Of a stretch of 64,000 nucleotides of DNA, positions 6,242-49,422 are shown in pieces. The notes under the pieces were generated by a model. That model was not told the DNA's origin. It ran no database searches and saw nothing but the letters and a program-made list of their open reading frames with translations. Each line of letters starts with the position of its first letter. Position 1 is the stretch's first letter. This DNA is from Pycnococcus provasolii. Its lineage: Eukaryota; Chlorophyta; Pseudoscourfieldiophyceae; Pseudoscourfieldiales; Pycnococcaceae. The stretch covers positions 124,001 through 188,000 of the forward strand of contig OW568884.1 in the NCBI GenBank assembly GCA_938743325.2, written 5' to 3'. The position numbers and the translations under genes are program-made.

Positions 6242-6379
6242 TGACGATGATGATGATGATGATGTCGTCGTGTGATGAGGAAAGCTGTATACATATTTTG
6301 TGAAGATTTTGTGTATGATTTGATTTACTAAGTAATAACAAGTTTGTATATTATGTAGACTAAGGTGCATTCCCGGAAC

Positions 6380-7000
6380 TCAACTCACCTCCCAGATGCT
6401 TTCCACCTCCACGACGCTCTGCAAAGGTAATATCGCACCGACTGCCGCCCTTGCTCCTTTCCCGCTCTCTCCAAATACCTCCACCATGACGTCCGAGAAC
6501 CCGTCCGCCACCTTCGGGTGCGCCGTAAAGTCACTCGAGCTATTGACGAATACGCTCGCCTTGACGAGCCTGACGACTCGGTTCAAGTCACCGAGCGTTC
6601 CCTTGAGTGCGCTCAGTGTGGCGATGGCACAAGCGCGCGCGCCCGCGACTCCCGCGGCGACGTCACTCTCTGTTTGCATTCTTCCTGTGATGACGCCCCC
6701 CGTTTCGTCGCGTGCAATCTGCCCGCTGACGTACGCGAGGTTCCCCGTGATGACGACAGGTCTGTAGTTCGCGACGGCCGCCGGTGCGACGGCTGAGACT
6801 GGTAAGTTGAGTTCCACAATACGTTGTTCCGGGAATCCCGAACTGTGGAGTGGTGGTGGGCGGGACAGAGACGAGAGAGACAACGAAGAAGGCTGATGAT
6901 CACTAAGGGTACCCTGATGATGATCACCATGACCACCACTACCACCATTACCACCAGGTGCCGGTGCGACTATAGAAGTGATCTTACCTAAGATATTCAT
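6380..7000 (-). CDS. RidA/YjgF/YER057c/UK114-family protein
   Basis: 206 residues from the ATG at 7000. The N-terminal 65 or so residues are low-complexity (Gly, Ser, His), perhaps an organelle-targeting or disordered extension. The family domain then runs to the C-terminus: LNLPVSAVAPAAVANYRPVV, then AYVSGQIA, then AVGAILPLQSVVEVESI. This order matches the second RidA subgroup (LNLP...PAANY...SGQ). RidA proteins deaminate reactive enamine/imine intermediates from pyridoxal enzymes. Whether this subgroup keeps that activity is uncertain: the usual catalytic Arg context reads KGARAAVGAI here, so an Arg is present. Upstream sequence AGTAGTACT abuts the ATG and recurs at the ARM-repeat gene start (13545). 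It diverges from the helicase gene across a 718-bp spacer. Confidence 0.8.
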   Translation of the reverse strand: MNILGKITSIVAPAPGGNGGSGGHGDHHQGTLSDHQPSSLSLSSLSRPPPLHSSGFPEQRIVELNLPVSAVAPAAVANYRPVVITGNLAYVSGQIARDETGGVITGRMQTESDVAAGVAGARACAIATLSALKGTLGDLNRVVRLVKASVFVNSSSDFTAHPKVADGFSDVMVEVFGESGKGARAAVGAILPLQSVVEVESIWEVS

Positions 7001-7718
7001 AGTACTACTAAGAATAAGCCTGTACTGTACTAACAAAAGCGCAAAGTATCAAGTAGGTACTGTACTTTTAAAAAAAGTAAATAAGAATAACTTCTTCTTC
7101 TTCAAATCAGCAGCAGTGACAACCGATGTGATGTGATGGCGTAATCTTGTGATGGCCGATCCCAAAAACCCAAAACAAACGGGTGCTGATTTTAGTTTGG
7201 GGGGGAGGAATCCATTGGTGTGGAAACCTGTTCCTGAAATGAAAGCAATTCAATTCAAGGGGGTCCCGGGAATTCCCAGTTCCCATCGCACCGTTATAGA
7301 GGTCAAATAGGTACTTTATGCAAGGGGAGTCGTGGATTAGGGTTGTATGGCACGACGAACTACGATAGGGTTACAAGTTACAGCTAGGGTTACCGGTTTC
7401 GGGGGAACACCAGGCTGACAGGGGCAACAGACAGGGGAGAGTCCCCAGGGGATTAGGGTTGTATAGGGCACGACGAACTAGGGTTACAAGTTAGGGCGCT
7501 TGGCGTTTTGCCTTTGATCGATCGCCTTTCACCCGGATGTTCCCCCTTCGTCATTATTGCCGCACAAAGCACACTTAACTTAACGTTGCGTTAACTTAAG
7601 TTGCGTAAGGAAGCAAGTAAGGAAGCACCGTGCGTCTCAGGATTATATTAGTGACATTAGTCTTCTTTTGAGTCTTCACTCTTCTTCGGTCTTCTTCTTC
7701 TTGTGGTGGGAAAACATC
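7001..7718. promoter_or_regulatory. Divergent 5' spacer between RidA-family and helicase genes
   Basis: A 718-bp non-coding gap between two divergent start codons, so it probably holds both promoters. It contains several TTAGGG-like fragments and two imperfect direct repeats (7334-7380 and 7450-7494). No canonical TATA box could be assigned. Confidence 0.5.
7334..7494 (+). repeat. Pair of imperfect direct repeats with TTAGGG cores
   Basis: Copies at 7334-7380 and 7450-7494, 116 bp apart. Both run GGATTAGGGTTGTAT, then GGCACGACGAACTA, then AGGGTTACAAGTTA, with a few inserted or lost bases. Each copy holds two telomere-like TTAGGG/TAGGGTT cores. Confidence 0.75.
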
Positions 7719-10700
7719 ATGGGTCGCATGAACGGGGGTGGGGGTCGTCGGAACGGAGGGGGCGGATTCCAAGAAGGACAGTGCGACGGCAAAAAACAAG
7801 GAAAAGCAGGAAAAGGATCATCATCAAGGTACAGCGCCAACACCACGAAGCGAGATTCGGATGGGCGTGGTGGTGGTGGTGGGCGTGGTGGTGGTGGTGG
7901 TCGTGGTGGCGGTCGTGGTGGCGGTGGTGGATATCATAATCACCATGCCACATCATCAGAAGCCACTGCAACGTCAAACTCGCAATCGCAACACGCATCT
8001 GTGGATGTCGCACACGCCGACCTCTCCGCGCTCAGAACGGCGCTGCTCACACACGCAAACTTGGAGAGTGCCACCACCACCGACTCGGAGTCCGCACAAC
8101 AACAACAACAACAACACGCCGGTGGCGCCGCGGACGACGCCGTGTCTGCTGAGGTATTCAGAAAGGCGCAAGAGATAATGCTCAAAAGGGGATTCAAAAA
8201 AGACGACGCAGAACGCGCTCTCAACGCAACGGCACCCTCCGCGGCGGAATCCGATGCCGCGCTCGGATTCAACCAGCGCTATCGAGCGCTCGCGGCGAGA
8301 GCAACAGACTGGCTTCTACTGCGACTTGAGGCAAGCAATATCCCCAAACAGCTTACGACAGCCACCGCGCCACCGGCAGCACCAGCACCACCTGTACGAG
8401 GAGGAGCAGGAGGACGCGGCGGACGCGGTGGTGGTGGTCGAGGAAACAAACACGCGACAGCGACTTCGTCTGCACCAAGCCTCGCACCGCCAAGAGCAAA
8501 TGATGCGGATGCCACCGCGCGTCTCGCGGCTGCCGCCGAGCAGGCTGAAACTCACGCGACATCGTCAACCATCAAGCCAGCCACGGCGGCGGAATCGCAA
8601 AGACTGTCTGATCTAGCCTTGTCACTGAAACAGTCGACAGACGACGCGCAGAGAAAGCTATTCACGGCTCGGGCTCATCTCCCTTCTTGGGCAAAGCGCA
8701 AGGAGGTGGTTGATGCAATCACAAAGTCACCCGTCACGGTTGTGTCTGGGCAAACAGGAAGCGGCAAATCAACTCAGGTACCGCAGTACCTGCTTGACGA
8801 TGCCGTTGAGCGCGGTTTCGGAGGGTCGTTCAATTGCATTGTGACGCAACCACGCCGCATCTCCGCCACGTCGGTAGCTATGCGCGTCGCGCAGGAGCGA
8901 GGCGAAACGATTGGAGATACCGTGGGGTACCAAATTCGTCTCGAAGCGAAACGGTCCAAACATACGCGTATCTTATTCTGCACCACAGGTGTGCTGCTAC
9001 GCCGCCTCAGTGACGACCCAGCGCTCCAAGGCGTATCGCACATAGTTGTGGACGAAGTGCACGAAAGGAACTTGGACAGCGACTTTCTCCTCGTTCTCAT
9101 CAAGGAGGTTCTGCCACTTCGGCCGTCCCTTCGTATCGTGCTAATGTCCGCGACGCTGAATGCCGCTCAATTCCGCAAGTACTTCGAACGACGTTCCGCT
9201 CCAAGACCATCTCTTGTGGAAATCCCCGGCTTCACGCACCCTGTGACGGAGTTTCACTTGGAGGACATCCTCGCCGTCACGCAGTGGTCACCGAAGCCAA
9301 ACAATGAGTGCCTCAAATCGACGCCTGGGCCCTCTGACGCGGGAGAGGCTGCTTACCTCAAAAGTCTTTCTCAGCGAAATTATTCCGACGACGTCGTGAG
9401 AACTGTTGCGCGGCTCGAGCAGAGCAAGATCAACAACGAGCTCATCGTGTTGCTCTTGGAACGCATTTGCCACGATGCGCCGCCAGGAGCCTGCCTCGTA
9501 TTCGTAAGCGGCCTAATGGAAATCACCACACTGCATGATTTGGCCCTAAATAATCACACCATTCGCAGTGCGACCAAAGGTGGGAAGCTTTGCATCGGGC
9601 TGCACAGCTCGCTGAGTTCCACGGAGCAAAACACGATCTTCAATCCTGCACCTAAGGGATGCCGGAAGATCATCATCAGCACCAACATTGCGGAGACCAG
9701 CGTGACGATTGACGACGTGGTGTATGTCGTCGACACCGGTCGCGTGAAAGAGACTGGTTTTGACGCGGTGACGCGCATGAGTACTCTGAAGGAGGTTTGG
9801 GTGTCTCGCGCATCCGCACGACAACGTCGAGGCCGCGCGGGGCGCGTGCAACCTGGTCAAGTGTTTCGGCTGTACACGCGAGATGTGCACGACCGCATTA
9901 TGGCAGAGCATCCCGAGCCAGAGATCCGGCGTGTGCCGCTCGAGTCATTGTGCCTCCAGATTGTGCACCAACGTCTTCCGGGTGGAATCCAAGGTTTCCT
10001 TGCCAAGGCTGTTGAGGCACCAGATGCGTCAAGCATTTCGGCATCCATAGCCTCACTTCGCCAAATGGGAGCTCTCGACGCCAGCGAGGAGGTGGAGAGT
10101 CTGACGCCGCTTGGAACGATCCTCGCGCAGCTGCCCGTTGATGTTCGTGTTGGTAAGATGTTAGTCTATGGAGCGATTTTTGGGTGCGTCGAGCCCGCGC
10201 TAACTCTTGCCGCTGCGCTCGGCACCAAGGGGCCGTTCGTCTCTCCTCTGGACAAGCGCGATGAGGCGGATGCGGCAAAAAAGGCGATGGCGCGTGGATC
10301 CGAATCTGACCACTTGGCGGTGGTCTACGCATACGAAGGTTGGCAGCGGGCTCGGTCGGCTGGTGGGCGCGCCGCACAGCGCGCATATCTCGATGAGAAT
10401 TTTCTATCGTGGCGCTCTCTGGAAGCGATGGAGAATGCGCGACGTCAGCTCCGGCAGCTTTTGCGAGGCGTAGGCCTGCTTGGCGATGGTGAGGCTGGCG
10501 CTCGCGACCTTTCCGATCTGCGCACGGTTCCTCTTCTTAAGGCTGTTTTGGTTGCTGGTTTATATCCCAATGTGATTCGCGTGGACATTCCCAAGACTCC
10601 TTCAACGGTTGGCGGCGGACGAGGCGGCGGACGAGGTGGAGGACGAGGTGGCGGGCGAGGTGGCGGGCGAGGTGGCGCCTTGGACGCGGCGGCGGCGGAG

Positions 10701-29890: not shown

Positions 29891-30988
29891 AGTAATTGAA
29901 ATGAGCGTCGTTTCTTTCATTTCTTAAACGACTTACGAGGCACACGTCCTCTACCCTACGCCACTACAAACACTTGAGGTCGTTCATGCCCACACCTCCC
30001 TCGACCACATGACCTTAAATCTGACGCATCTTTCTTAAGGTTTCTTGAAACCTTTTTTGTTTTATGGAATGTGCTGTACCAAGCCTTGTGGTACCGGTCT
30101 GCCGGTACCGTATGTGCAAAACTAAGGTGACGTAAAATTTACCTACTGGTAGGAGTGGCTGATCAAGGGAAGGTGCACATTTCCAGAAGAAAAAGGAGTG
30201 GCTGATCGACGAAAACTTAGTCTATCACAGATCCAATAGTTTAAAGATATAGGTATAGCATGCACGGTGCCGTAAACTTGACCTCAATGCTCGGTCAAGA
30301 AGAAACAGAGTCGAGTCAGTCACCTTATGGCTGATCCAATGATGGGGAAGCAATCAGGAGGCTGATGAGAACCCAACGCCTGACGCCAAATGTAAAATGT
30401 AAATCTCGCATGATGACGGGTCCGAAGCATCATCATGGTTACTTGACGAGGGCACGAGGCCATCCATCATCCATCATCCATCATCCATCATCCATCATCC
30501 ATCATCCATCGGCCAGCGCATTTTAGTGGTAGAATACACACGACCTGTACATAAGGACTACATACGGTATGTATTTTGCCGTGGTCGATCAAAAGTGTCC
30601 AGTAAAGTTTACCGGGTCCCTTTGAGCCTACTGTATCGAGGTCGTCCTCGTTGTAAAGTTTCGGCGCACGCAAAGCCAATGCATTGCACCCCTTGTTCAA
30701 TCAGGCCAGTTTTCAATAAATCAGCCACTTTTGTATTTTATTTTATTTTTTGAGAATCCAACACACGCACGTGGTCTGGTCTCGATTCTCCTCGTGAAGG
30801 GGGAAACCGCCCGGCCGGCCGCGTTTCGCCATCATCAACAACATCATCACCATCATCGTGATGATGATATCTGTCGACATCACGTCAGCATCGTCGTATC
30901 TGGCCTTGTCTTAAGTTAAGTTAAGTTCAGGTTTTTATTGTTTCGTCTTTTTTTTCGTTTTCTCGTCGTTTCACGTATCTTAAGGACT
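29891..30988. promoter_or_regulatory. 5' spacer of the hybrid synthase gene
   Basis: 1098 bp without a believable gene on either strand. It contains the ATCCATC microsatellite, near-palindromic patches (GGTACCGGTCTGCCGGTACC near 30091) and a TTAAG run just before the synthase start (CTTAAGTTAAGTTAAG near 30910). The distal part is presumably the 3' end of the LRR/EF-hand transcript. Confidence 0.45.
30461..30510 (+). repeat. ATCCATC microsatellite
   Basis: About seven tandem 7-bp units (CATCCAT register). Confidence 0.9.
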
Positions 30989-33900
30989 ATGACGCAACGT
31001 CTTTTTCAAGTCTCGTCTTCGTCGTTGGACGGTGGTGGTGGTGGCGAAACGCAAACGCAAAGTCAAACGCAAAGTCATGGGGAAAGTGGGTCGTCGAAGA
31101 CGGGAGGATGTAACCTACTGGTTCTACCTGGTGCCGGACAGAGTGGACCCGCCGTCGTGCGAAAGTGGATCCAAGAAAAAGTCGCTCATGCTGAAGACAA
31201 CACGGACGTCGCAATATACGCGTACGTGGCGCCAGGACGGGCTGGACGACCGCACGCAGTACACGACCCCATGAACATGCAACGACTCGCCGACGACGTC
31301 GTGGACGCTGTGCGTGAGCAACGCGTATGCGACGCGCCACTCGCCATCTTCGGACACAGCTTCGGGGCACTGCTTGCGTACCACGTCTGCATCGCCATGA
31401 AGCGACAAGGTCTGCCACCTCCCATCCTGCTCGCCGTCTGCGCGTGCGCCGCGCCGTGCGTGCCAAAGGAGCGCAGACGAGCCGCTCTGCCCGAAGAAGC
31501 CAACAGGCCAGACGCGGACGCTCGTGTGCTGCTTGACGCTGCGGATACAGTGTGGGGCGATGGCACGATGACGCAGGCTTTTGCATCCATGCTTGAAGGC
31601 GTTGACGAAGAAGAGGCGGAGAGGACGCTTGAGGCTGCCGCTGCACCGCTGCGCTACGACCTTGCCATCATGGACCACGACATTAACTGTTCACGAGAAG
31701 CCGTGCATGGAACCACGCAGCTCGTCGCGTACGGCGGCACGGCGGACAGCGCGGTCAGCATGCAAGACGTGCTCGCATGGTCAACTCAAGCTGCTGACAA
31801 GCGAATGTGCAGCGTCGTTCAGCTCGAAGGCGCGACGCATACAACCGCGCCGGCTCAGGCGCTCTCTCGGGCGATTCGCACCGCGCGCGACACAGCGCAG
31901 GCGCAGCCACGCGCTGTCGCTGCATCGAAAAGCACCATCATCCGTCTCATGGAGAGCAACATAGTGGAAGCTTTTGCAAGTCGTGCCGGCGATGCACCGA
32001 GTCGTGAGAGCCTGCTCAACGACGAGACGCATCGCACGCAAGCCTTGAAAGAATCACAGCCCACGTGGCGCACGTACGCCGAGGTTCAGCTGGCAGCCCA
32101 GAATTTTGCAATGGTGCTTCACGATGCCGGCGTTCGCAATGGTAGCGCAGTGCTCGTATATGCGCCGCCCACCGCCGCCGCGCTCGTCGCACAACTCGGG
32201 GTACTGCACGTTGGCGGCGCCGTGCTGTGCGTGGAAAATCCGTTGCCAGCGGGTGCTCTCATGGACCGTTGCGTCGCAGCTGACGCCATCATCGCCGTTG
32301 CTCATGGCGATGGTGCGTGGCATGACGTGGCAGCCACGCTGGGAATTCGTGTCATTCCGATCCCTGAGTATGCCGATGCAGAGCTAAGCGCACCATTTCC
32401 GCCAAGCGTGCTTGCATCTCCGCCGCATCCAATTCTTGCATCGGACACCGCGTTCGTTGCAAGCACGAGCGGGACAACGGGTAGGCCGAAGGCTGTGGCA
32501 TTTAGCCACGGCGCATCAATGCACTGCTTCTATGTTCGCGAGGCACTCTTTCCCTACTGCGAAAACGAGACGGAGGCGGTTAGCCTCTTCTTTGCATGGG
32601 AATGGCCTCGGCCGCTCATCTTTGGCGTGCGGTGCGCCTGCATGCCAGAGCATGCAAAGCTCGATGCTCCGGCGCTCGCGCGTTTCATCCACTCGACATG
32701 CACGAGCCGCATAACGATCACGCCGGCGCTGCTGGTGAACTTGCTTGCTCACTACGCCGTCGATCCTAGCATGCTATCGTCACTAAGAGTCGTGACGCTC
32801 ATGGGCGAAATTGCGCACATCAGCCTTGCGGCGCAGTTCGCGGACATGGTACCAACAGCAACGCTCGTCAACTGCTATTCTACGTGGGAAGCGGGTGATG
32901 TGAGCTACGGCGTGATGGCAGACATGGGTAGAAGTCTGCCCGTGCACACCCTCGCCACGAATGCCTCGGTGGGTACTCTGATCGCGGGAGCGACTGCTCT
33001 TGTTGTTGATCCAGAGACACGCATACCTCTCCCGCATGGTCAACCCGGCGAGCTCTTGGTTGGAGGTCCTGGTCTTGCAAGTGGCTTTGTAGGCGGAGGA
33101 CCAGACGCCGACGCAAAGTTTGTTCTTCTTTCTGCGGACGACCCACTTCGCAAGCTCAGCGCGTGCGACCGGCTGTATCGCACTGGGGATCGTGTGATCA
33201 TGCGACATCATGGAGAGCTCGAAGTCCACGGTCGTGGAGACGGCGTGATCAAAGTCAACGCGTTCAAGGTGCCGCTCAATGAGGTGGAAGCTGTGCTGTG
33301 CAGCGCGCCTGGTGTGATGGCGGCGCTCGTGGTACCGATCGATAGAAGTGGTGCTCTATGCAATGTGCACAGCGGAGTTGCAGATATTGTGGGCATCGCA
33401 GCCTACATCGTTGGAGATATCAATAGCGCGCGCGTTCGCGCCAAGGCCCGCCTGCCACCGTATGCCGTTCCACGTAGCATGATTCGCGTGGAGAAGCTTC
33501 CAACCCGGAGCGGCGGTAAGGTCGATCTCGCAGCACTCCCGAACCCGTCCAACATCGCAACTGCGGACGACCAGTCAACTTCTTCTCCGCAACATGATGC
33601 AATCGAGATCTTTGGCACCGCGCATCATTCCAATCGTGCAATCGTGGCTTCACTCGTGGAGGCTGCTGCCAGTCTGCTGCCGATGCCTGAGTCGGCGGCG
33701 GCGGCGCTCTCCAAAGGTGACGACTTCTTTTCCGTCGGTATTACAAGCTTGCTCGCTGGGCAGCTCGCGTCGCGCCTCGCGCAGGATTTAGGACAAACGG
33801 TGAGCGTGCTGGATATCATGGCGCACCCATCACCTCGTTCCCTCGCTGCATTCCTTACAAGACGTGCGACAAAGAAAGACAATGCTGCCGCACCTCAGGT

Positions 33901-36900
33901 CACGCCGCCTTTGCGCCCAGATATTCCTCAGCTTGTGATTGCCACAGGGTTCGAGGGCAAGTTCCCTGGTGCGTCCAATGCAGCAACATTCTGGGCCAAC
34001 CTTCTTCAAGGCAAGGACAGCCTTCGCATTCTCGATCATGCTGATCTGCGCGCACGTGGTGTGCCATCTGAGGCAATAGCAAGGCGGGATTTCGTTCCTG
34101 CTGCACAGGCGATTGATGGCGCCTTCCTCTTCGACGCGCCATTCTTCCGCATCAGCCAGATCGAAGCGACGATGATGGATCCACAGCATCGCCTTCTGCT
34201 GGAATGTGCCTGGTCCGCCGCGGAGGCTTCTGGAACAGCACCGCGCACCGGAACTCCCGTGCACGGCTGCGTTGCTGCTGCTTCGGGCATTGACGGATAT
34301 CACACGCACCATGTGCGGTATGAGCACCCTTGGCTTGATCCTGGGCGACAATTCCTTGCAGAGGTGGGTAGCGAAAAGGATTATTGTGCGGCGCGTGTCG
34401 CATGGGGTCTCGACGTGGGTGGGCCTGCTATTGTGGTCCAGGCTGCTTGTGCATCTGGATTACTTGCGGTAGCCACCGCTACTCCATGGATCGCAGACGA
34501 TGGGTACACGTTCGCCATCGCAGGTGCGGCGAGTCTTACATTCCCGAACTTGGGATATCTGTATGTCGCCGGCCTCGTTGGCTCAGATGATGGCCGCGTG
34601 CGTCCATTTGATGTCGGCGCGAGTGGTACACTTTTCGGGGATGGCGTCGCCTGCGTATGCCTGGAGGCGCACACGAGCAGAGAAGATGTGATACGAGAGC
34701 ATGCATCAACTGGAGCGATTGTGCGTGGGTGGGGAATATCGAGCGATGGAGCGCGAGCCAAAAGTGCTTTCGCCGCACCAAGCGCTGTGGGCCAGTCAGA
34801 TGCGATGATGCAAGCCATGCGCCGTGCGCAAATTTCCAGTCCACGAGACCTCGACTTTGTCGAGGCGCACGCAACAGCAACCCTGATCGGTGACGCTATC
34901 GAGGCTCGTGGCCTTGCTATCGCATGTGAAAGTGCTAAGGTTGGTGCGGCACCGTCGGGAACATTGCTTGGGAGCGTGAAGGGCAATATTGGGCATGCAA
35001 ATGCTGCGGCAGGCATGACGGGCTTTGTCAAGGCATTGCGCACAATGCAGACACAGCACTTTCCGTCCACTTGCCACTTGCAAAACATCAACCCGCATGT
35101 TGCAAGCAATCTAGACGGCACGGGACTGAGTGTGATGCGCTCTGCGTCCATACTGCCACGTGAGGAAAGACCCGTGAAGGGAGGCGTGAGCAGTTTCGGT
35201 ATAGGAGGGACTAACGTGCACACCATTTTGGAGCAGCTTCCTTCACAAGAGGCGGCGTCTCCGAAGTATTCAGCGAAGTCTGCATTACTTGCTTTTGCTG
35301 TATCCGCACGATCCGAGGCGGCGCTCATTGCCACTTGCACGCAACTTGCCGATTGGCTAGAGTCGGATGATGCAATGGACTTTCCGCTCGAAGATGTCGC
35401 ACGCACACTAGCAGTGGGGCGAGAAGTGTACGCCTTTCGTCACGTGGTGATCGCATCCAAGCGTAGGGATTTGGCTGAACTTTTACGCGATGTTCAGTGC
35501 TCGCAAGTGGAGGAGGGATCCGACGATGGCACCTTTGCACTTTCCTTTGCAGGAGAGACCAAGTGCAGCCGCGGCACCACCGCTGCTGCACTTGTGAAAG
35601 CTCAGATACAGCATTATGCCGCATTGAAAGAATCAGGAGCTCAGCCAATTGCCTGTGCTGCCGCAGGTGTGGGCTTACTTTCTGCTACCGTGGCGGCAGG
35701 ATTAATGTCTGCTCATGAGGCGCATGCTGCCGCGGTGGATGTCGATGCAGGCATGCTCGTCGCCGCGGCAGAAAAGGCGGCGCGAGCGATAAGCATGCAC
35801 GCCAAAGAGGAATCTCCCACAGCACCTTTACCAATAGCTGTATCGCACACGAGTTCATGGCTTATGTCTCGTGACGCCGCTGGTGAAAGCCTGTGGTTAT
35901 CAGCTTTTTCAAATCATGCAAGCATCGAGCGCGCGGAAGATCTTCTCGCGCGATGGAATCCCTCTTCCACTCTTTGTGCAGAAACACTTGCTGATATCTC
36001 CGATGCGCAGTTGCGAGTCGTTGAAGGAAAAGACGTTTCCATCTCTGCGGTTCTAGCGAAATTGTGGCGATCCGGATCGCTTCCGCTCGCTTCGCTTGCG
36101 CCAGTCTCAACTGCTCGACGAAGAACGATTCCCGGGTACGCATTTCAGCGAAAGCTATACGCGATTCGTGCGTGGGCAAGTATCTACGGCGATCCTCCCA
36201 CGCCTTCAGAGTTAGCATCTACAATTGACAAGAAGTCGCAAGAAACGCGTGGGCTGGTTAGTGAACGCGCTTGTTTCCTTGTGCGTGCGAGAAAAGAGCC
36301 AAGACTGCGGAAAGTAGAAAATGTTCTGTACTGCTTTCCATTTGCAGGTGGTTCTGCGTCGAGTTTGCTGCGCGCAACACGCGTCGTGCCAACTGACGTT
36401 GACGTTGCTTGCGTGGAGCTTCCATGCCGCGGCCGCCGTGGAGAAGAACCCCATCCCATGTCTGATCGAGACGATATGAATCAAATCAATGCAATTGCCG
36501 ATGCCATAGCAAAGGATGCCTCGGCGTGCAACATTGCATTCCTTGGGCTTAGCTATGGAGCACTGGTCGCCACCGAGGTGGCATCCGCATTGAGAGAGCG
36601 GCATCAAATGACGCCATATCTGATTGTGATTGCAGGACGTGCATCTCCAGGGAAAGTCGCGAAACAGCACGAGCACCCCGCACCGGCACCCGCGGCCGAG
36701 TCCTCCGATTCCGACGAAGGGGAAGAGGCATACATGCTTGCACCAGAGGCGATACGTGGTTCAGACGAATGGAACGATACTTTTCTTCCACGCCTGCGAC
36801 TTGACCTGGCTGCTGACATGAGGGCGTCGGCACGTCTCGAGAAAGGCGCCGAGCTACCCGAATCGTGTCACATGCATGTTGTATGTGGCGCAGAAGATCC

Positions 36901-38767
36901 AGCTGCTCCAATCGGAGATGCCCATCGCTGGTCAGCGCTGCGCACAGGTGGGGCGCCCGTGAATTCGATTAGCACGCTTCCCGGTGACCACGGCTTTCTT
37001 GTATCAGAGCTTGATGCAATTTTCAGCATTGCATCGCAGGCCATGGACAATCTTGGATATCTCGCGCATCCCATAAAGACATTTGCTTGGGAAGCTGTTG
37101 GAACATTTTCTCGGAAGCACCATTCGTCCAGCTCAGATGGTTGTGTTATCTTAAAACCTGAGGAGGTGAATGCGACAACCGCTGACCTGATGAAAACAGG
37201 AGTCCGCGTCGTTATGGACTTGACGACGGTCGAGTCTAATGATCTGCATTGCGATATGCACATTTGTGATCATGTGGCGATGGCATCCACATGGATGGAT
37301 TCGGAGCTCGAGCGGACTGCCCGGGCAACAGCCGCGCTACAGTGCCTTGCATCGAATGGCGCGAAGGGCGACTTGATACTCGCGCTTCCGGCAAGCGCCA
37401 CGGGAGGCGGTGCTGCAGCTATGAGCCGTGTGGTGCCACTTGAGTGTCCCGCACTGCGTGTTCGTCGAGTCTTTCTCGACCGTGGCTCGGCCCGCGAGGC
37501 GGCAGATGCATGTTATGCCGTGGGTGGAGAGGATGTCGACCTTCTTGTTCGTAGCTTCGGCAGGGGCATGAGTCGCATACTAGTGCCGCGATTACGGGTG
37601 CGCCTTGACGATGGAAGAGGGTACGAAGGACGAGCGCGCAGGCGGAGACGAGAGCGAGACGTTATTTGTCCGATTTTTCTTTCGAATTTATCGGCTGACG
37701 AGGACACGATCATCGTCACCGGCGGGACAGGCGCGCTCGGAAAGGCTGTCGTGTCGTGGCTACTCGGCATGCCAGGCATTCGTCATGGCAGCGTGCTGGT
37801 CTTGTCGCGGAGAAAGCCGGCTGCTAATGATCGTGTTGCTGGCGCCGTTTACGCGTCTGTTGATCTTTCTGACGCCGATGCCGTGAATGCGTGCGCTGCG
37901 CTTCAAACTGTGCGCGGAGTTGCGGCCATCTTCCATCTCGCTGGTACGCTCCGTGACGGCGTATTCGAAACTTTGACCCCCGGCAACCTCGCGGCTGTTG
38001 CGGCTCCGAAGACGCGGGCCTTCCTTCACCTACTTGCACTTGTTGAAGTGCGAGGCTGGATGCCCCGCTTCGCGTGCATATTTTCCTCCACATCGAGCCT
38101 GCTGGGTGCAAGAGGCCAGGCGAGCTATGCTGCTGCAAATGGTGTTCTCGACCAGCTTGCATGGTTTGGTCCAGACGCGCGCGAGCGTGCCGGCCTTCCC
38201 TTCGCGGCCACTATGCCCTTGCTGGCGGTGAATTGGGGCAGCTGGGGCGAGGCTGGAATGGCTGCGCGCGGAAGCCATGCATTTGCGAGTGCGCTTGCTT
38301 CGGGAGAACGACCACTTCGGACCGAGGAAGCGCTGCGATGTTTGGGGATGTCCTTAGATGCATTCGCGGGTGAACCGGCGCCTTGTGCTGTTGCGATTTG
38401 CGATGTTCACTGGAAACAGAGTCCTTATCGTGAATCTGCAATCATACAGCCTCTACTACCGATGGGGGATGAGAATGCAGCAGACATGTCGTCGGAAGTA
38501 GCGGGGGGAATTTCCCCCTCCGGGCCAAAAGACGGCGATCTTACACAGCGTGTCGTATCTATCATTGAGCCTTTGGCTGCTTCGTGGGATTTAAGCTCAT
38601 CCCAAGCTCTGAATATGCTCGGGGTTGATAGCCTGGATGCGGTTACCATGCGCAATGCCGTCAATGCGGAATTTGACGCCTCGGTGTCACTCCAGATATT
38701 CTCGGATTTGAGTGTGACTCCTGAGGAGCTTGTGACGAGATTGGTACACGAATTATCACAAATCTAG
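30989..38767 (+). CDS. Hybrid adenylation/type I polyketide synthase: TE-A-T-KS-(AT)-TE-KR-T
   Basis: 2592 residues, no intron; ATG at 30989 (no earlier in-frame ATG). Thioesterase 1 (about 35-300; GHSFGALL, Ser124). Adenylation domain (about 315-865; TSGTTGRPKAV at 493, unusual A5 stretch NCYSTWEAGD near 627, YRTGD, GRGDGVIKVNAFK near 748, C-terminal Lys in SGGKVDL). Carrier domain (about 885-960; GITSL, Ser920). Ketosynthase (about 983-1418; Cys1154 in QAACASG, His1294 in EAHATATLIGD, His1336 in KGNIGHANAAAG). Degenerate acyltransferase (about 1440-1745) lacking a GHSxG nucleophile (AAGVGLLSATVAAG at 1559) but ending with the usual post-AT PGYAFQRKLY. Thioesterase 2 (about 1765-2020; GLSYGAL, Ser1855). 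Ketoreductase (about 2030-2440; TGGTGALG at 2244, Tyr2380, AAAN). Carrier domain (about 2515-2590; GVDSLDAV, Ser2548). By domain logic the A domain loads a starter acid onto carrier 1 and KS extends it once with reduction, but the extender loader and the release step are missing or in trans. Confidence 0.9.
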   Translation: MTQRLFQVSSSSLDGGGGGETQTQSQTQSHGESGSSKTGGCNLLVLPGAGQSGPAVVRKWIQEKVAHAEDNTDVAIYAYVAPGRAGRPHAVHDPMNMQRLADDVVDAVREQRVCDAPLAIFGHSFGALLAYHVCIAMKRQGLPPPILLAVCACAAPCVPKERRRAALPEEANRPDADARVLLDAADTVWGDGTMTQAFASMLEGVDEEEAERTLEAAAAPLRYDLAIMDHDINCSREAVHGTTQLVAYGGTADSAVSMQDVLAWSTQAADKRMCSVVQLEGATHTTAPAQALSRAIRTARDTAQAQPRAVAASKSTIIRLMESNIVEAFASRAGDAPSRESLLNDETHRTQALKESQPTWRTYAEVQLAAQNFAMVLHDAGVRNGSAVLVYAPPTAAALVAQLGVLHVGGAVLCVENPLPAGALMDRCVAADAIIAVAHGDGAWHDVAATLGIRVIPIPEYADAELSAPFPPSVLASPPHPILASDTAFVASTSGTTGRPKAVAFSHGASMHCFYVREALFPYCENETEAVSLFFAWEWPRPLIFGVRCACMPEHAKLDAPALARFIHSTCTSRITITPALLVNLLAHYAVDPSMLSSLRVVTLMGEIAHISLAAQFADMVPTATLVNCYSTWEAGDVSYGVMADMGRSLPVHTLATNASVGTLIAGATALVVDPETRIPLPHGQPGELLVGGPGLASGFVGGGPDADAKFVLLSADDPLRKLSACDRLYRTGDRVIMRHHGELEVHGRGDGVIKVNAFKVPLNEVEAVLCSAPGVMAALVVPIDRSGALCNVHSGVADIVGIAAYIVGDINSARVRAKARLPPYAVPRSMIRVEKLPTRSGGKVDLAALPNPSNIATADDQSTSSPQHDAIEIFGTAHHSNRAIVASLVEAAASLLPMPESAAAALSKGDDFFSVGITSLLAGQLASRLAQDLGQTVSVLDIMAHPSPRSLAAFLTRRATKKDNAAAPQVTPPLRPDIPQLVIATGFEGKFPGASNAATFWANLLQGKDSLRILDHADLRARGVPSEAIARRDFVPAAQAIDGAFLFDAPFFRISQIEATMMDPQHRLLLECAWSAAEASGTAPRTGTPVHGCVAAASGIDGYHTHHVRYEHPWLDPGRQFLAEVGSEKDYCAARVAWGLDVGGPAIVVQAACASGLLAVATATPWIADDGYTFAIAGAASLTFPNLGYLYVAGLVGSDDGRVRPFDVGASGTLFGDGVACVCLEAHTSREDVIREHASTGAIVRGWGISSDGARAKSAFAAPSAVGQSDAMMQAMRRAQISSPRDLDFVEAHATATLIGDAIEARGLAIACESAKVGAAPSGTLLGSVKGNIGHANAAAGMTGFVKALRTMQTQHFPSTCHLQNINPHVASNLDGTGLSVMRSASILPREERPVKGGVSSFGIGGTNVHTILEQLPSQEAASPKYSAKSALLAFAVSARSEAALIATCTQLADWLESDDAMDFPLEDVARTLAVGREVYAFRHVVIASKRRDLAELLRDVQCSQVEEGSDDGTFALSFAGETKCSRGTTAAALVKAQIQHYAALKESGAQPIACAAAGVGLLSATVAAGLMSAHEAHAAAVDVDAGMLVAAAEKAARAISMHAKEESPTAPLPIAVSHTSSWLMSRDAAGESLWLSAFSNHASIERAEDLLARWNPSSTLCAETLADISDAQLRVVEGKDVSISAVLAKLWRSGSLPLASLAPVSTARRRTIPGYAFQRKLYAIRAWASIYGDPPTPSELASTIDKKSQETRGLVSERACFLVRARKEPRLRKVENVLYCFPFAGGSASSLLRATRVVPTDVDVACVELPCRGRRGEEPHPMSDRDDMNQINAIADAIAKDASACNIAFLGLSYGALVATEVASALRERHQMTPYLIVIAGRASPGKVAKQHEHPAPAPAAESSDSDEGEEAYMLAPEAIRGSDEWNDTFLPRLRLDLAADMRASARLEKGAELPESCHMHVVCGAEDPAAPIGDAHRWSALRTGGAPVNSISTLPGDHGFLVSELDAIFSIASQAMDNLGYLAHPIKTFAWEAVGTFSRKHHSSSSDGCVILKPEEVNATTADLMKTGVRVVMDLTTVESNDLHCDMHICDHVAMASTWMDSELERTARATAALQCLASNGAKGDLILALPASATGGGAAAMSRVVPLECPALRVRRVFLDRGSAREAADACYAVGGEDVDLLVRSFGRGMSRILVPRLRVRLDDGRGYEGRARRRRRERDVICPIFLSNLSADEDTIIVTGGTGALGKAVVSWLLGMPGIRHGSVLVLSRRKPAANDRVAGAVYASVDLSDADAVNACAALQTVRGVAAIFHLAGTLRDGVFETLTPGNLAAVAAPKTRAFLHLLALVEVRGWMPRFACIFSSTSSLLGARGQASYAAANGVLDQLAWFGPDARERAGLPFAATMPLLAVNWGSWGEAGMAARGSHAFASALASGERPLRTEEALRCLGMSLDAFAGEPAPCAVAICDVHWKQSPYRESAIIQPLLPMGDENAADMSSEVAGGISPSGPKDGDLTQRVVSIIEPLAASWDLSSSQALNMLGVDSLDAVTMRNAVNAEFDASVSLQIFSDLSVTPEELVTRLVHELSQI

Positions 38768-42444: not shown

Positions 42445-44271
42445 CTATCTTGAGACGATGCGTAGCGAAACGAGTGGGTTGGTGCGCGGTCGGAGCGTGA
42501 GGCCTGCGTCAGCCGCAATGGGGAAGGAGTCGTCCACGCGCAGTCTTCCTAGGTTGTCTGTCGGTGCATCGCTCGTATAGCCAGGCCATCGCATGCTGTG
42601 CTTGCGCAGCAGCGTGGCAGCAAGGACCACCACCTCGCAGACTGCAAAGGCACTGCCAATGCAATTTCGCGGACCACCTCCGAACGGAATGTACATCGGT
42701 GATCCACGAAGGGTGCCGTTGGCACCATCCTTGAGTGCGGAAATGAACAGCGGGGCATCGTGCGCAGGCTCGGCGGAAAGCACGCACGGCGCATCTGGCG
42801 CACCTTCCGGTAGCCATCTACGAGGCTCGTAGCTCGTGACTGCATCCCACTGGTTCGTGCGATGTGCAAGATACGCGCACGGAAGAACGGTGGCACCCTG
42901 TGGCACGTCGCCGAGACCGGGTAATGTCGTGTCCATCGTCGCACAGCGACCAATCAGGTAAGCGGGAGGATGCAGACGTAGGCTTTCCAGCACGCATGCT
43001 TCGAGGTATCGTAGCCTGGACACGTCGTCAAGCGTGAACGATTCGCCCCCTTTGCTCGCGGCAAGTGCGTCCACCTCGTCCGTGCATCTTGATAGCGGCG
43101 AGGTACTTGTTGCGTTCGCGGCGCTTCCAAGCGCGAGGTCGACAAGCAGCCAGAAGAGCGCAATCGCGGATGTCTCCTGCCCGGCGACAAGCATGGTTGT
43201 CACCTCGTCGCGCAGCTGTTGATCGGATGTCTCTGCACCGGATGCCGCAACGAGTCTTGTGAGCAGGTCGGCGTCGCCTTCAGGCTCACCTTGTGTTTGC
43301 AGTCGCCGTCGTCGATTTCGTATGATACTTAGCACGACTTCGTCCACCGCCGCGACCGCCTGGCGGAAGCGCAGGTTGCCAGGAGTGGGCAGCCACTCCG
43401 GGTCTGCGAACCCTCTCGCACCTCGCGCGGCGAACTCGTCGAGAGCCACCTCGAGGTTGGTGGTAAGTGCGTCGGCGTCGTCGACGAGAAAGTCCTCCCC
43501 GAAAAGCACCTCTCCGGCGATAGCGAGCGTGAGTGCGTTGCACCGACTCCACAGCGAAACGACCTGGTCACTCGCCCAGTCGCGCGCGAACGTCCGCTCC
43601 GCGTTTGACGCCATGACTCGACTGTATCTCCTGACGGCGGCGTCGCGGAACGCGGGTGCCGCTGCGCGCCTTTGTCGTTTCCACGCGTCGCCGTCGCTCG
43701 TTAAGAGTCCGTCGCCGGTGAGTATGGAGTTGGGAAAGAACGCCGTTCCGTCTTTCTGGAATCTGTGTGCGTCTGTGCTGAGCACGAACTTGAGCGCGTC
43801 GTTCGACCAGATGACGACGACGAGTTGTCCCGCGAGCGCGAGTCCCGCGCCGCCTTGTTGTGTCTGCGCGAGTCTGCTGAGTAGCGCGAGCGGCGCGGAC
43901 GCCATGTCGGGCGCGGCGTCCGTTGCGGGTCCCTTCGGGAAACCCGGAGGTCGCGATCCCGCCAGTGCGACCAATAGGCGATCCGAGACGGACGGCTCCA
44001 CAATGGTGACGACGGCCGAAGATGACGTGGACGACGACGACGACGATTCTGATGACGCAGATGCAGATGCACAAAGCACGTGATGTGTTCGCAGACGACA
44101 TCGCTCTGATCCAAGGGAATGTGAACCTAGTAAAGAGGCCAGGGAACGTGAAGAGGTTGTTCTAGAGATACATGCTACTCGAGATGAAGAGGAATGAGAA
44201 CGCCGCCGCCCATAACATGAACGACCATTAGAAGACGACATGGACAGATGCTGTAGCTTGAGCATGTTCAT
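42445..44271 (-). CDS. Cytochrome P450, probable plastid-targeted
   Basis: 608 residues from the ATG at 44271; the ATG at 44241 would remove ten. The first 90 residues are Ser/Arg-rich with few acidic residues (MSSSNGRSCYGRRRSHSSSS), as expected of a plastid transit peptide, followed by a polySer patch. P450 motifs: the C-helix W in GDAWKRQRRAAAPAF, I-helix LVAGQETSAIALFW, K-helix ExxR in LESLRLHPP, PERF-type RRW, and the heme-binding FGGGPRNCIGSAFA (Cys537). The I-helix and QLRDEVTTML recall the CYP97/CYP4-like clan; CYP97 members hydroxylate carotenoids in plastids. Family assignment is not certain. Open sequence upstream of the ATG comes from an AC-rich repeat and is not counted as coding. 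Confidence 0.88.
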   Translation of the reverse strand: MNMLKLQHLSMSSSNGRSCYGRRRSHSSSSRVACISRTTSSRSLASLLGSHSLGSERCRLRTHHVLCASASASSESSSSSSTSSSAVVTIVEPSVSDRLLVALAGSRPPGFPKGPATDAAPDMASAPLALLSRLAQTQQGGAGLALAGQLVVVIWSNDALKFVLSTDAHRFQKDGTAFFPNSILTGDGLLTSDGDAWKRQRRAAAPAFRDAAVRRYSRVMASNAERTFARDWASDQVVSLWSRCNALTLAIAGEVLFGEDFLVDDADALTTNLEVALDEFAARGARGFADPEWLPTPGNLRFRQAVAAVDEVVLSIIRNRRRRLQTQGEPEGDADLLTRLVAASGAETSDQQLRDEVTTMLVAGQETSAIALFWLLVDLALGSAANATSTSPLSRCTDEVDALAASKGGESFTLDDVSRLRYLEACVLESLRLHPPAYLIGRCATMDTTLPGLGDVPQGATVLPCAYLAHRTNQWDAVTSYEPRRWLPEGAPDAPCVLSAEPAHDAPLFISALKDGANGTLRGSPMYIPFGGGPRNCIGSAFAVCEVVVLAATLLRKHSMRWPGYTSDAPTDNLGRLRVDDSFPIAADAGLTLRPRTNPLVSLRIVSR

Positions 44272-44625
44272 CAACAGACACGTACAGGTACCACTACTAC
44301 CGGGTACGAAGAGAGGGACTTGGTTCGGATAACCTCGTCCGGTTGAACTGAAAAAAGCCGAACTTCCCAAACCCCGAAACAAACAACAAACGCCAAAGGT
44401 AAACCCCCAAACACCAAACCCCCAACCAACAAACCCCGAAACAAACAACACCAAACCCCCAAACAACAAACGCCAAAGGTAAACCCCGAAACAAACGCCA
44501 CTCCTTCTCCTCTTAGTCTATCAAGGGGAGTTAACAAAAGCTTACAGTAGGGTAGGAAAGGTGGGCCCTTTTCGTTATCCCCTGCCCCAAATAGGTACAC
44601 TTCATCCGACTCATTTGGAAAACAC
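44272..44625. promoter_or_regulatory. Divergent 5' spacer between P450 and plastid-type protein
   Basis: 354 bp between two divergent starts, half of it filled by an AC-rich repeat (about 44362-44502). Confidence 0.5.
44362..44502 (+). repeat. AC-rich imperfect minisatellite
   Basis: About 140 bp with almost no T and few G on the plus strand. Recurring modules are ACCCCGAAACAAACAACA and CAAACGCCAAAGGTAAACCC, each present two or three times with changes. Confidence 0.8.
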
Positions 44626-47788: not shown

Positions 47789-48174
47789 CCAGAGAGTACT
47801 GTGCTTAAGCTGTTACTCTCGAGCAGTCACTACGATAACAGCCATAGTACTACTGTGTCGCTGTTTCTTGCAGCTGTTTCTTGCGCACTTGACCAGTTGC
47901 CAGTGGTTACCTATACGGGTTTCACACTGCAGCACTGTGTTCCTTCCAGGGGAGTCAAGTGCTCCTTTTACTGGCTTAAGGCGTAATAAGCTGAGCCTCA
48001 GCTGCTGCACTTGGTGACTGACCTCTTGGGGATAAGGTTAAGACGTTTGACTTAAGAGGATACATAAGATACGCTCGTCTTAGTAGGCTCGTGGAGTGCT
48101 GATAGCTGGTGAGTGAGAACCTTAAAATATCATCAGCTCGATACGTACGATAGATTCCGTTCACCACCACCATC
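47371..48174. other. Intergenic region with GT microsatellite
   Basis: 804 bp between two rightward genes. It holds a GT run at about 47751-47783 and a copy of CATAGTACTACT at 47843. No gene was recognised. The last few hundred bases presumably carry the GT29 promoter. Confidence 0.5.
47751..47783 (+). repeat. GT dinucleotide microsatellite
   Basis: About 15 GT dinucleotides, slightly interrupted at the 3' end. Confidence 0.9.
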
Positions 48175-49422
48175 ATGTGGCTCGAACGTATGGTGTTCCT
48201 CTTCCTGCTAAGCGTAGTGACGCTGCGCCTGCTCCTCGTTGGCAGATACGGACTCGCAGGTGTGCAGGTGGCAGAGCCGACGATAACGGCGGACAAGGCG
48301 TTGGACGAGCCTGCGTCGAGACCGTCGGGGTCGTCCGGCGACGACGGAAAGGGTGGCGAGGATGCCGTCGCCATCTCGCTCGCTGACGGCGCGGATGAGG
48401 AGGACACGATGCCCGACGAGGTGCTGGCGAACGTCGACGGGGACGGAGAAGGTGACGCAGGAGGTGACGGCGACGAAAGGCAACGCGTGAGTATGGCGGG
48501 AGGGGTGAAACTCAGGCTGGGAAGCCGAGCTGCCGCCAAGGCGGCTGCCGAAACGGCAAGACAGACAGTCAAGTCGATCGAAAGCCGAGCTACGTGGCGC
48601 GTTCTCGACCACCTGCGCCTCGTCGACGGTAGCACGAGGCTGGTGACGCACAAGCGCCAGTTCATCGTGTACAACGCCACCCTCAAGCACGTCGTGCTGC
48701 GCCACTGGCTGGAGTACAGAGAGGCGAACAACACGCTCATCTACCACTTCCCGCGGAGCCTGTTCGAGCTGCTGCCTCTCGAGGAGCCGAAGTGGCGCTT
48801 CGGCCGCTGTGCCGTCGTCGGCAACTCCGGAGTCGTGCTGCTGGCGGAAAATGGCGCGGAGATCGATGCCCATGATGCGGTGTTCCGCATCAACATGGCA
48901 CCCGTGCGTGGGTACGAGGCTTACGTGGGAAAGAAAACAACGTTCGACATCGTCAATAGCCATAACATTCGCGAGCTGCTTCAGGGCATGCGGCACTGGC
49001 GCAATAGCGAGAGTGACGAGGCGCATTTGGTCATGTTCGAGACGGCAAGTCACTTCGCGCGCTATCACCTCTGCCAACCGCTGCTCAAGCGCTTCCCGCA
49101 CGCGCATCCGGTGCTGCTCAATCCAATCTTCAGCAACCACTGCCATCGCGTTTGGGTGCAGCTGAAGTACCTTCTGGAGAAGGAGCAGAGCAGCCAGTAC
49201 AATCGCAAGCCGATGAGTGGATTCTTCGCCACACTCATGGGCATGCAGATGTGCGACCACGTGGACTTGTACGGCTTCGACGCGTACACGAGCAAGAGGA
49301 GAAGCTATCGATACCACTACTTCGACAATATTCAAGGTTTCACGGACGTGCACTCGTTCGACCTTGCCATCGCCGTGTACAAGCTAATTCAGAAAAAGGG
49401 TGGCCTCAGCATTCGATCGTAA
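48175..49422 (+). CDS. GT29 sialyltransferase-like glycosyltransferase
   Basis: 415 residues with type II topology: a short N-tail and one anchor helix (MVFLFLLSVVTLRLLLV), then an acidic/Gly stem to about residue 110, then the GT29 domain. Sialylmotif L is clear: RCAVVGNSGVVLL, then EIDAHDAVFRINMAP, then GYEAYVGKKTT (Cys212). Sialylmotif S: GFFATLMGMQMCDHVDLYGFD (Cys360). Motif III/VS appears as RYHYFDN. In animals these enzymes move sialic acid from CMP-sialic acid in the Golgi. Plants and algae have homologues that often use Kdo-like or unknown donors, so the reaction is not assigned. The motifs look intact. Codon use matches the neighbours. Confidence 0.9.
   Translation: MWLERMVFLFLLSVVTLRLLLVGRYGLAGVQVAEPTITADKALDEPASRPSGSSGDDGKGGEDAVAISLADGADEEDTMPDEVLANVDGDGEGDAGGDGDERQRVSMAGGVKLRLGSRAAAKAAAETARQTVKSIESRATWRVLDHLRLVDGSTRLVTHKRQFIVYNATLKHVVLRHWLEYREANNTLIYHFPRSLFELLPLEEPKWRFGRCAVVGNSGVVLLAENGAEIDAHDAVFRINMAPVRGYEAYVGKKTTFDIVNSHNIRELLQGMRHWRNSESDEAHLVMFETASHFARYHLCQPLLKRFPHAHPVLLNPIFSNHCHRVWVQLKYLLEKEQSSQYNRKPMSGFFATLMGMQMCDHVDLYGFDAYTSKRRSYRYHYFDNIQGFTDVHSFDLAIAVYKLIQKKGGLSIRS

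What the first reader, a model, noticed from the sequence alone, without database searches (positions are those of the whole stretch)
30989..38767. Single-gene hybrid synthase with order TE-A-T-KS-(AT)-TE-KR-T
Two thioesterases in one polypeptide, one at the very N-terminus and one between a degenerate AT and the KR, with no terminal TE or reductase, is a domain order I do not know from described algal, fungal or bacterial type I synthases. The A-T pair looks like an adenylation loading module and KS/KR a single reductive extension. The N-terminal TE could edit or hydrolyse the starter, and TE2 could act as an in-line release or editing domain.
Basis: partly seen in the sequence, partly recalled or inferred. 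Interest (0 to 1): 0.85.

Follow-up and report, generated by a model that had tools for sequence, protein, structure and literature searches.

The report
Green-algal BurA-like two-thioesterase synthase
A single gene in a green alga encodes an assembly-line enzyme whose odd domain order, with two thioesterases, is already described in dinoflagellates; it may make gonyol, a sulfur osmolyte for which the papers seen name no algal enzyme.

Summary
One uninterrupted ORF (30989-38767, 2592 aa) encodes TE-A-T-KS-(dead AT)-TE-KR-T, with catalytic residues or core motifs kept in both TEs, A, KS and KR. The AT has lost its Ser (GHSxG to AAGVG) and gives no Pfam AT match. The order is not new: PMC7159223 reports exactly TE-A-PP-KS-AT-TE-KR-PP for 'burA-like' NRPS/PKSs of dinoflagellates, and PMC7073580 describes a haptophyte synthase with an A domain, one alcohol-forming PKS module and two TEs. 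The host belongs to the green lineage (Lhca3-type antenna protein). Its genome also holds a paralogue, TE-A-T-KS-AT-KR-T, with an intact AT and no second TE. The KSs of the pair are sisters and group with bacterial KSs, apart from 10 KSs of the alga's other PKSs. Both A domains lack the amino-acid Asp and have a shortened hydrophobic loop, as reported for A domains that load zwitterions (DMSP, glycine betaine). Best reading: a BurA-type synthase that loads DMSP, adds one malonyl unit supplied in trans, reduces it and hydrolyses off gonyol. Substrate, product and activity are inferred, not shown.

The parts
30989..38767 (+). whole synthase gene, intron-less, 2592 aa, TE-A-T-KS-(AT)-TE-KR-T
   Evidence: open frame with ATG at 30989 and stop at 38765-38767
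31115..31852 (+). TE1, type II-like thioesterase at the N-terminus; GHSFG Ser124, Asp253 (GGTAD), His284 (GATH)
   Evidence: PF00975 1.1e-14 (partial), PF12697 3.8e-11; nearest PDB chains 3qmw/3qmv, 7e3z, RifR, YbtT; motifs
32033..33520 (+). adenylation (A) domain; core motifs STSGTTGRPK, YRTGD, GGKVD present; amino-acid Asp235 absent, 5-residue shorter hydrophobic loop; Asp637 near GrsA position 330 (GrsA numbering recalled)
   Evidence: PF00501 1.1e-45; PF13193 weak, below its cut-off; alignment with 8 control domains and PDB chains
33653..33856 (+). T1 carrier domain, non-canonical GITS with Ser920
   Evidence: PF00550 1.1e-11
33938..35080 (+). ketosynthase (KS): CASG Cys, EAHATAT His, NIGH His present
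   Evidence: PF00109 2.8e-42, PF02801 5.8e-26; motifs; tree
35303..35491 (+). KS-AT linker
   Evidence: PF22336 1.3e-13
35500..36160 (+). degenerate, shortened acyltransferase remnant (ends approximate); catalytic Ser to Gly; ends in a kept post-AT linker (GYAFQRKLY)
   Evidence: no PF00698 match at E<=1; alignments
36326..37033 (+). TE2, type II-like thioesterase between AT remnant and KR; GLSYG Ser1855, Asp1970 (GAEDP), His2001 (GDHGF)
   Evidence: PF00975 8.1e-18; nearest PDB chains 3qmw/3qmv and RifR
37034..37705 (+). region between TE2 and the KR catalytic half, probably the KR structural subdomain
   Evidence: position only, no profile match; inference
37706..38248 (+). ketoreductase: TGGTGALG, Lys2341, Ser2366-2367, Tyr2380, Asn2384; LRD at the LDD position
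   Evidence: PF08659 3.6e-25; motifs; alignment to paralogue
38594..38743 (+). T2 carrier domain, GVDSL with Ser2548
   Evidence: PF00550 4.3e-06

Best explanation
This is a green-algal member of the BurA-like NRPS-PKS hybrids. The A domain most likely activates a zwitterionic acid without an alpha-amino group, first candidate dimethylsulfoniopropionate (DMSP), and loads it on T1. KS condenses it with one malonyl unit that a discrete malonyltransferase has placed on T2, because the in-line AT is dead. KR reduces the beta-ketone to an alcohol. With no C-terminal TE, a type II-like TE hydrolyses the short product, TE2 being the better placed, giving gonyol (3-hydroxy-5-dimethylsulfoniopentanoate); TE1 would clear mis-loaded T1. 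Shown: one frame, domain order, catalytic residues, AT loss, discrete ATs in the genome, KS lineage near bacterial KSs, A-domain loop. Inferred: substrate, AT supply, roles of each TE, product. My estimate is about 0.9 that it is BurA-type in architecture and lineage, and 0.45 for the whole account through gonyol.
For: Identical domain order in dinoflagellate burA-like synthases. BurA shown to load DMSP and make gonyol, in PMC7496086. Both A domains of the alga have a loop 5 residues shorter than 8 of 8 control domains and no Asp there. The paralogue with the TE-A-T-KS-AT-KR-T order matches residues 50-1526 of P0001 at E 1.3e-118. The paralogue keeps GHSIG...KAFH, like the GHSLG...KAFH reported for burA-like ATs. 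KS pair sister at 98/96 inside a group with bacterial KSs at 100/100, apart from 10 KSs of the alga's other PKSs. T1 is non-canonical here (GITS) and in the A. carterae BurA-like transcript (GAES), T2 is GxDSL in both. Discrete ATs, two with ankyrin-like repeats by eye, as described in PMC7159223. Both TEs nearest to stand-alone TEs in the PDB. Gonyol in all haptophytes and dinoflagellates of a 16-species survey, and two-TE A-PKSs reported in both groups.
Against: No green alga is named as a gonyol producer in the passages seen: T. striata lacks it, and PMC8269262 lists prasinophyte cultures but its passages name only dinoflagellates and haptophytes as sources. The acidic pocket residue is not diagnostic: 2 of 8 control A domains carry Asp at the aligned place, and the paralogue lacks it there. 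DMSP synthesis genes were not established; the only PF00891 match found in the genome is a generic methyltransferase by profile and PDB matches, and DSYE-type genes were not sought. T1 is non-canonical and the focal KS branch is long (1.65 against 0.82), which could mean relaxed constraint and makes its place in the tree unsure. The cis AT, active in the dinoflagellate members, is dead here. No bacterial BurA and no whole dinoflagellate sequence was compared.
Confidence: 0.45

Rival explanations
1. Same BurA-like scaffold but a different starter: an unknown acid without an alpha-amino group, giving another beta-hydroxy acid.
For: Missing Asp235 excludes only ordinary alpha-amino acids; the focal and paralogue pockets differ from each other, so at least one may use another acid; PMC7073580 reports an alanine prediction for the haptophyte two-TE protein while its legend says specificity is not clear.
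Against: The shortened hydrophobic loop is the feature reported for zwitterion-loading A domains.
Confidence: 0.25
2. Glycine betaine is loaded; one malonyl extension and reduction give carnitine, so this would be a polyketide route to carnitine. The focal gene and its paralogue could split DMSP and glycine betaine between them.
For: The loop signature is shared by the glycine-betaine domain ATRR-A and by BurA-A; betaine + C2 + KR = 3-hydroxy-4-trimethylammoniobutyrate follows from chemistry; two paralogues with different pockets are present.
Against: No direct evidence; no precedent known to me, and none was searched for in the papers.
Confidence: 0.08
3. Decaying or non-catalytic copy: the AT loss, non-canonical T1 and long branch mark a gene that has lost its function while the paralogue keeps it.
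For: Dead AT; T1 GITS; KS branch twice as long as the paralogue's.
Against: 7.8 kb open with no stop; catalytic residues of TE1, TE2, KS and KR and the core motifs of A kept; the alga's other PKSs also lack cis ATs.
Confidence: 0.12
4. No hydrolytic release: both TEs only edit, and the beta-hydroxyacyl chain is passed in trans to another enzyme.
For: Both TEs resemble stand-alone type II TEs; no terminal TE or reductase.
Against: No partner synthase among the 17 other ORFs of the window that were scanned, of 36 listed; bacterial BurA yields free gonyol in E. coli.
Confidence: 0.1

Closest known systems
burA-like NRPS/PKS of dinoflagellates (PMC7159223, passages; PMC6722697, passages; PMC9027781, passages)
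   Same: identical order TE-A-PP-KS-AT-TE-KR-PP; internal TE unusual among modular TEs; discrete ankyrin-linked ATs elsewhere in the same organisms; non-canonical T1
   Different: their AT keeps GHSLG...KAFH, here it is dead; KS motifs differ (VNSACSSALVA...HCGTG...NIAH there; QAACASGLLA...HATAT...NIGH here); host here is of the green lineage
bacterial BurA, gonyol synthetase (PMC7496086, parts 1-2 of 3 read)
   Same: A domain without Asp235 and with a short hydrophobic loop, T, single KS extension, KR
   Different: part of the malleicyprol pathway; its sequence was not fetched, so identity was not measured; whether it has N-terminal or internal TEs is not stated in the text read
haptophyte two-TE A-domain PKS (E. 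huxleyi, Chrysochromulina; PMC7073580, passages and figure legend)
   Same: A domain, one PKS module forming an alcohol, two thioesterases
   Different: position of the TEs is in a figure I could not see; AT state of this protein not described in the passages
algal NRPS-PKS hybrids of 212 genomes (PMC10794256, passages)
   Same: A-carrier starter module followed by a hybrid KS-AT-carrier module with extra KR or TE domains
   Different: exact orders and hosts are in figure S6, not seen; a green-algal example of this order may be among them
green-algal trans-AT modular PKSs (PMC4661987, passages; and the 23586, 17190 and 13856 aa ORFs of this genome)
   Same: reliance on discrete ATs
   Different: KS lineage distinct from the focal pair

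Membership tests
burA-like NRPS/PKS (dinoflagellate definition, PMC7159223) | domain order TE-A-PP-KS-AT-TE-KR-PP | tested here: met
   Pfam scans and motifs; the AT is present only as a degenerate remnant
burA-like NRPS/PKS (dinoflagellate definition, PMC7159223) | active cis AT with GHSLG...KAFH | tested here: not met
   focal has AAGVG and no AFH region; the paralogue has GHSIG...KAFH
burA-like NRPS/PKS (dinoflagellate definition, PMC7159223) | KS of the bacterial or cis-AT type, not of the protist trans-AT modules | tested here: met
   tree of 28 KSs (2 focal pair, 10 other algal, 16 bacterial): pair 98/96 inside a group with bacterial KSs 100/100; midpoint root, focal branch long, no dinoflagellate sequence available
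burA-like NRPS/PKS (dinoflagellate definition, PMC7159223) | KS active-site residues as in the clade (VNSACSSALVA...HCGTG...NIAH) | tested here: not met
   focal QAACASGLLA...EAHATAT...NIGH; catalytic Cys and His kept
burA-like NRPS/PKS (dinoflagellate definition, PMC7159223) | sequence similarity to dinoflagellate or Burkholderia members | not tested
   dinoflagellate sequences were not at hand; the bacterial one was not fetched
gonyol synthetase (BurA function, PMC7496086) | A domain lacks Asp235 and has a shorter hydrophobic loop | tested here: met
   5 residues shorter than 8 of 8 control domains in both algal paralogues
gonyol synthetase (BurA function, PMC7496086) | acidic pocket residue facing the cationic group | tested here: inconclusive
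   Asp637 at about GrsA 330, but 2 of 8 control domains have Asp at the aligned place
gonyol synthetase (BurA function, PMC7496086) | DMSP activation and gonyol production | not testable with these tools
   needs biochemistry
type II thioesterase (TE1 and TE2) | GxSxG Ser, Asp and His triad; nearest to stand-alone TEs | tested here: met

The most novel reading that the evidence does not exclude
The TE-A-T-KS-AT-TE-KR-T synthases of dinoflagellates, haptophytes and this green alga are the unknown algal zwitterion-elongating enzymes. One class extends DMSP to gonyol; sister paralogues extend other betaines, glycine betaine giving carnitine. In this alga the TE2-bearing copy has gone over to trans-acting malonyl supply.
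Probability: 0.15. Interest if true: 0.75.

Novelty: new variant of a known kind. Interest (0 to 1): 0.45.

Why it matters
Gonyol is abundant in dinoflagellates and haptophytes and in the presence of DMSP can stop bacterial formation of volatile sulfur (PMC7221440, passages), yet PMC7496086 stated in 2020 that the enzymes of gonyol biosynthesis had remained unknown before BurA. A defined algal gene family with an intron-less, expressible member makes the question testable by assay and by gene-metabolite distribution. In the held library, two papers hold all three of gonyol, BurA and polyketide synthase; of the 5 papers that hold at least four of gonyol, burA-like, dinoflagellate, haptophyte and synthase, none holds both gonyol and burA-like; three hold a phrase for gonyol synthesis (two read in part, PMC8611851 not read). 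The library lacks most subscription papers. The coexistence of a cis-AT paralogue and a dead-AT copy in one genome is also a possible snapshot of AT displacement, a process proposed for algal PKSs in PMC4661987.

Tried and rejected
The one genome-contig scan, with the two-sequence alignment, used two short patterns: 55 stretches matched, 16 loci confirmed. I used these as KS and A-domain controls and did not check each gene for the TE-A order. A search of the three genomes behind L042, L040 and L030 with the paralogue's TE-A-T part listed separate TE and A matches and no row running from TE into A. Host identification by 18S failed three times for machine reasons; the lineage rests on one Lhca3 match. 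The idea that the PF00891 gene is a DMSP-type methyltransferase was not supported: PDB and NCBIfam matches are generic O-methyltransferases. A biosynthetic cluster was sought in 17 of the 36 other ORFs of at least 220 aa in the window, the rest mostly overlapping frames: nearest are LRR/EF-hand, an unknown, a P450, another unknown, a GT29 and AP2; only the P450 looks like a possible tailoring enzyme. Loci beside the paralogue were fetched and their ORFs listed but not scanned. A paper search for an N-terminal thioesterase domain in PKSs found none. Structure prediction was not used. Figures and supplements were not seen, including Fig 4a of PMC7073580 and Fig S6 of PMC10794256.

Full report
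Observation. The frame from 30920 to 38767 on the + strand is open for 2615 codons. The first ATG is at 30989 and the protein has 2592 residues. Pfam places AMP-binding, PP-binding, KS-N, KS-C, KS-AT linker, Thioesterase and KR in that order, with a second Thioesterase and a second PP-binding stretch. Scans of segments give the N-terminal TE at 1.1e-14, the internal TE at 8.1e-18 and the last T at 4.3e-06.

Catalytic state. TE1 has GHSFG, the Asp of GGTAD and the His of GATH. TE2 has GLSYG, the Asp of GAEDP and the His of GDHGF. KS has its Cys (CASG) and two His (EAHATAT, NIGH). KR has TGGTGALG and the Ser/Tyr/Asn set. A keeps its core motifs. T1 is non-canonical (GITS), T2 canonical (GVDSL) (all). 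The AT is dead: no PF00698 match at E up to 1, GHSxG replaced by AAGVG, the AFH region missing, but the terminal post-AT linker kept. Which residues are catalytic, and GrsA numbering, are recalled family knowledge mapped onto the sequence.

Genome and host. The window lies in a 32.3 Mb genome of 46 contigs. One antenna protein, the only one compared with the PDB, matches Lhca3 and chlorophyll a-b binding chains best, E 4e-88, so I place the host in the green lineage; the species was not identified. The genome search lists 46 ketoacyl-synthase matches, many in open frames of 23586, 17190 and 13856 aa, but only 5 acyltransferase matches, 4 above the cut-off: one inside a PKS, the paralogue, and three discrete, two of them with ankyrin-like repeats by eye. 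The tool calls such counts lower bounds. A trans supply of malonyl units is thus available and is probably the rule in this alga, as PMC4661987 reports for most chlorophyte PKSs (passages).

Paralogue. The best other match to the protein in the genome is on G000:C29, 2669 aa, aligned over residues 50-1526 of P0001 (27-1503 counted from the Met) at 31% identity, E 1.3e-118. Its domains are TE-A-T-KS-AT-KR-T with an intact AT and one TE (sequence). In a tree of 28 KSs (the pair, 10 from the alga's other PKSs, 16 from bacterial loci) the pair are sisters (98/96) within a group of 9 that holds 7 bacterial KSs (100/100); the 10 other algal KSs form a separate group (100/99). The root is at the midpoint, for drawing only. 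Rows were one or two per locus from a BLAST against fetched loci; L022, L039, L044, L045 and further hits of other loci were left out. The focal row is a long branch, so its exact place is unsure.

A domain. In an alignment with seven of the eight bacterial A-domain hits and one ligase domain of the same alga (that label is mine, not scanned), both paralogues are five residues shorter than all eight at the loop that carries Asp235 in GrsA, and the loop is hydrophobic (SLFFA, YVFA). Alignment to solved A domains also puts gaps at or near this place, their size varying with the chain. PMC7496086 (parts 1 and 2 of 3 read) reports a shorter hydrophobic loop without this Asp in BurA-A, which loads DMSP, and in ATRR-A, which loads glycine betaine, plus an acidic residue. 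The focal protein has Asp637 near GrsA position 330, but two control domains have an Asp at the aligned column and the paralogue does not, so this point is not diagnostic.

Thioesterases. The nearest solved structures are 3qmw/3qmv and RifR for TE2, and 3qmw/3qmv, 7e3z, RifR and YbtT for TE1, which I know as stand-alone type II enzymes or their like. PMC7159223 notes in a supplement legend that internal TEs with homology to burA are the exception to the separation of modular and stand-alone TEs. I infer that TE2 hydrolyses the finished short chain and TE1 clears mis-loaded T1; nothing here tests it.

Known or new. PMC7159223 (passages) states the order TE-A-PP-KS-AT-TE-KR-PP for burA-like synthases, previously described in a wide variety of dinoflagellates. 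PMC7073580 (passages and legend) describes in three haptophytes an A-domain PKS with one alcohol-forming module and two thioesterases. PMC9500876 (passages) and PMC6722697 (passages) also discuss burA-like hybrids in dinoflagellates. PMC10794256 (passages) describes algal hybrids of the A-T-KS-AT-T kind with extra KR or TE domains; its figure of orders was not seen. What I did not find described, in the searches, is a green-algal member, one with a dead AT, or the pairing with a cis-AT paralogue without TE2.

Function. BurA converts DMSP to gonyol when expressed in E. coli. Gonyol was found in all haptophytes and dinoflagellates of a 16-species survey and in none of its diatoms or its cryptophyte, the same two groups for which two-TE A-domain synthases are reported. 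I did not test this correlation species by species. Against a green-algal product, Tetraselmis striata lacks gonyol and the passages of PMC8269262 name dinoflagellates and haptophytes as sources. DMSP is plausible as a substrate in green algae because DSYE is reported in Tetraselmis, Pyramimonas, Bathycoccus, Mantoniella, Micromonas and Ostreococcus (PMC11306096, passages), but DSYE was not sought in this genome.

Surroundings. The scanned neighbours give no convincing cluster: an LRR/EF-hand protein upstream, an unknown ORF and a P450 downstream, then another unknown, a GT29 and an AP2 protein; further out a helicase, ARM repeats, a weak sulfotransferase, a kinesin and PspA/IM30.

Verdict. 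A real, intact-looking, intron-less gene; domain order already described; best seen as a variant of the burA-like NRPS/PKS kind, with the cis-AT activity and the KS motifs of the dinoflagellate clade tested and not met. It works like a one-extension reductive synthase with a starter that is not an ordinary amino acid, gonyol being the most likely product.

Noticed in passing
G000:C22 (about 240500-306600), G000:C30 (about 15500-62000), G000:C5 (about 1057800-1096100): Single open frames of 23586, 17190 and 13856 aa with many KS modules and no AT match: giant trans-AT-type PKS genes without introns over these stretches.
   Followed up: no
L020 (G000:C2:12000-21999), ORF 1360-9900 minus: 2846 aa, by eye KS-KR-T twice and then a TE; a long KR-T stretch is repeated almost letter for letter, suggesting a recent module duplication.
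   Followed up: no
L022 (G000:C40:5000-14999), ORF from 4926 plus: PKS frame with repeated partial KS and reductase pieces in tandem by eye; looks like a rearranged or collapsing array.
   Followed up: no
L027, L029 (G000:C13 and C4): Discrete acyltransferases (GLSLGE) with N-terminal ankyrin-like repeats by eye, as reported for dinoflagellate trans-ATs.
   Followed up: partly
G000:C31 (133072-142609 and 360395-366434): Two clusters with 12 chlorophyll-binding matches of identical score in all, on both strands.
   Followed up: no
42445-44517 minus: Cytochrome P450 (PF00067, 3e-54; NCBIfam matches below their cut-offs), the only likely tailoring enzyme among scanned neighbours.
   Followed up: partly
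48154-49422 plus: Sialyltransferase-family (GT29) protein in a green-lineage genome.
   Followed up: no
30461-30510: Perfect 7-base tandem repeat CATCCAT, 7 copies, in the region upstream of the synthase.
   Followed up: no
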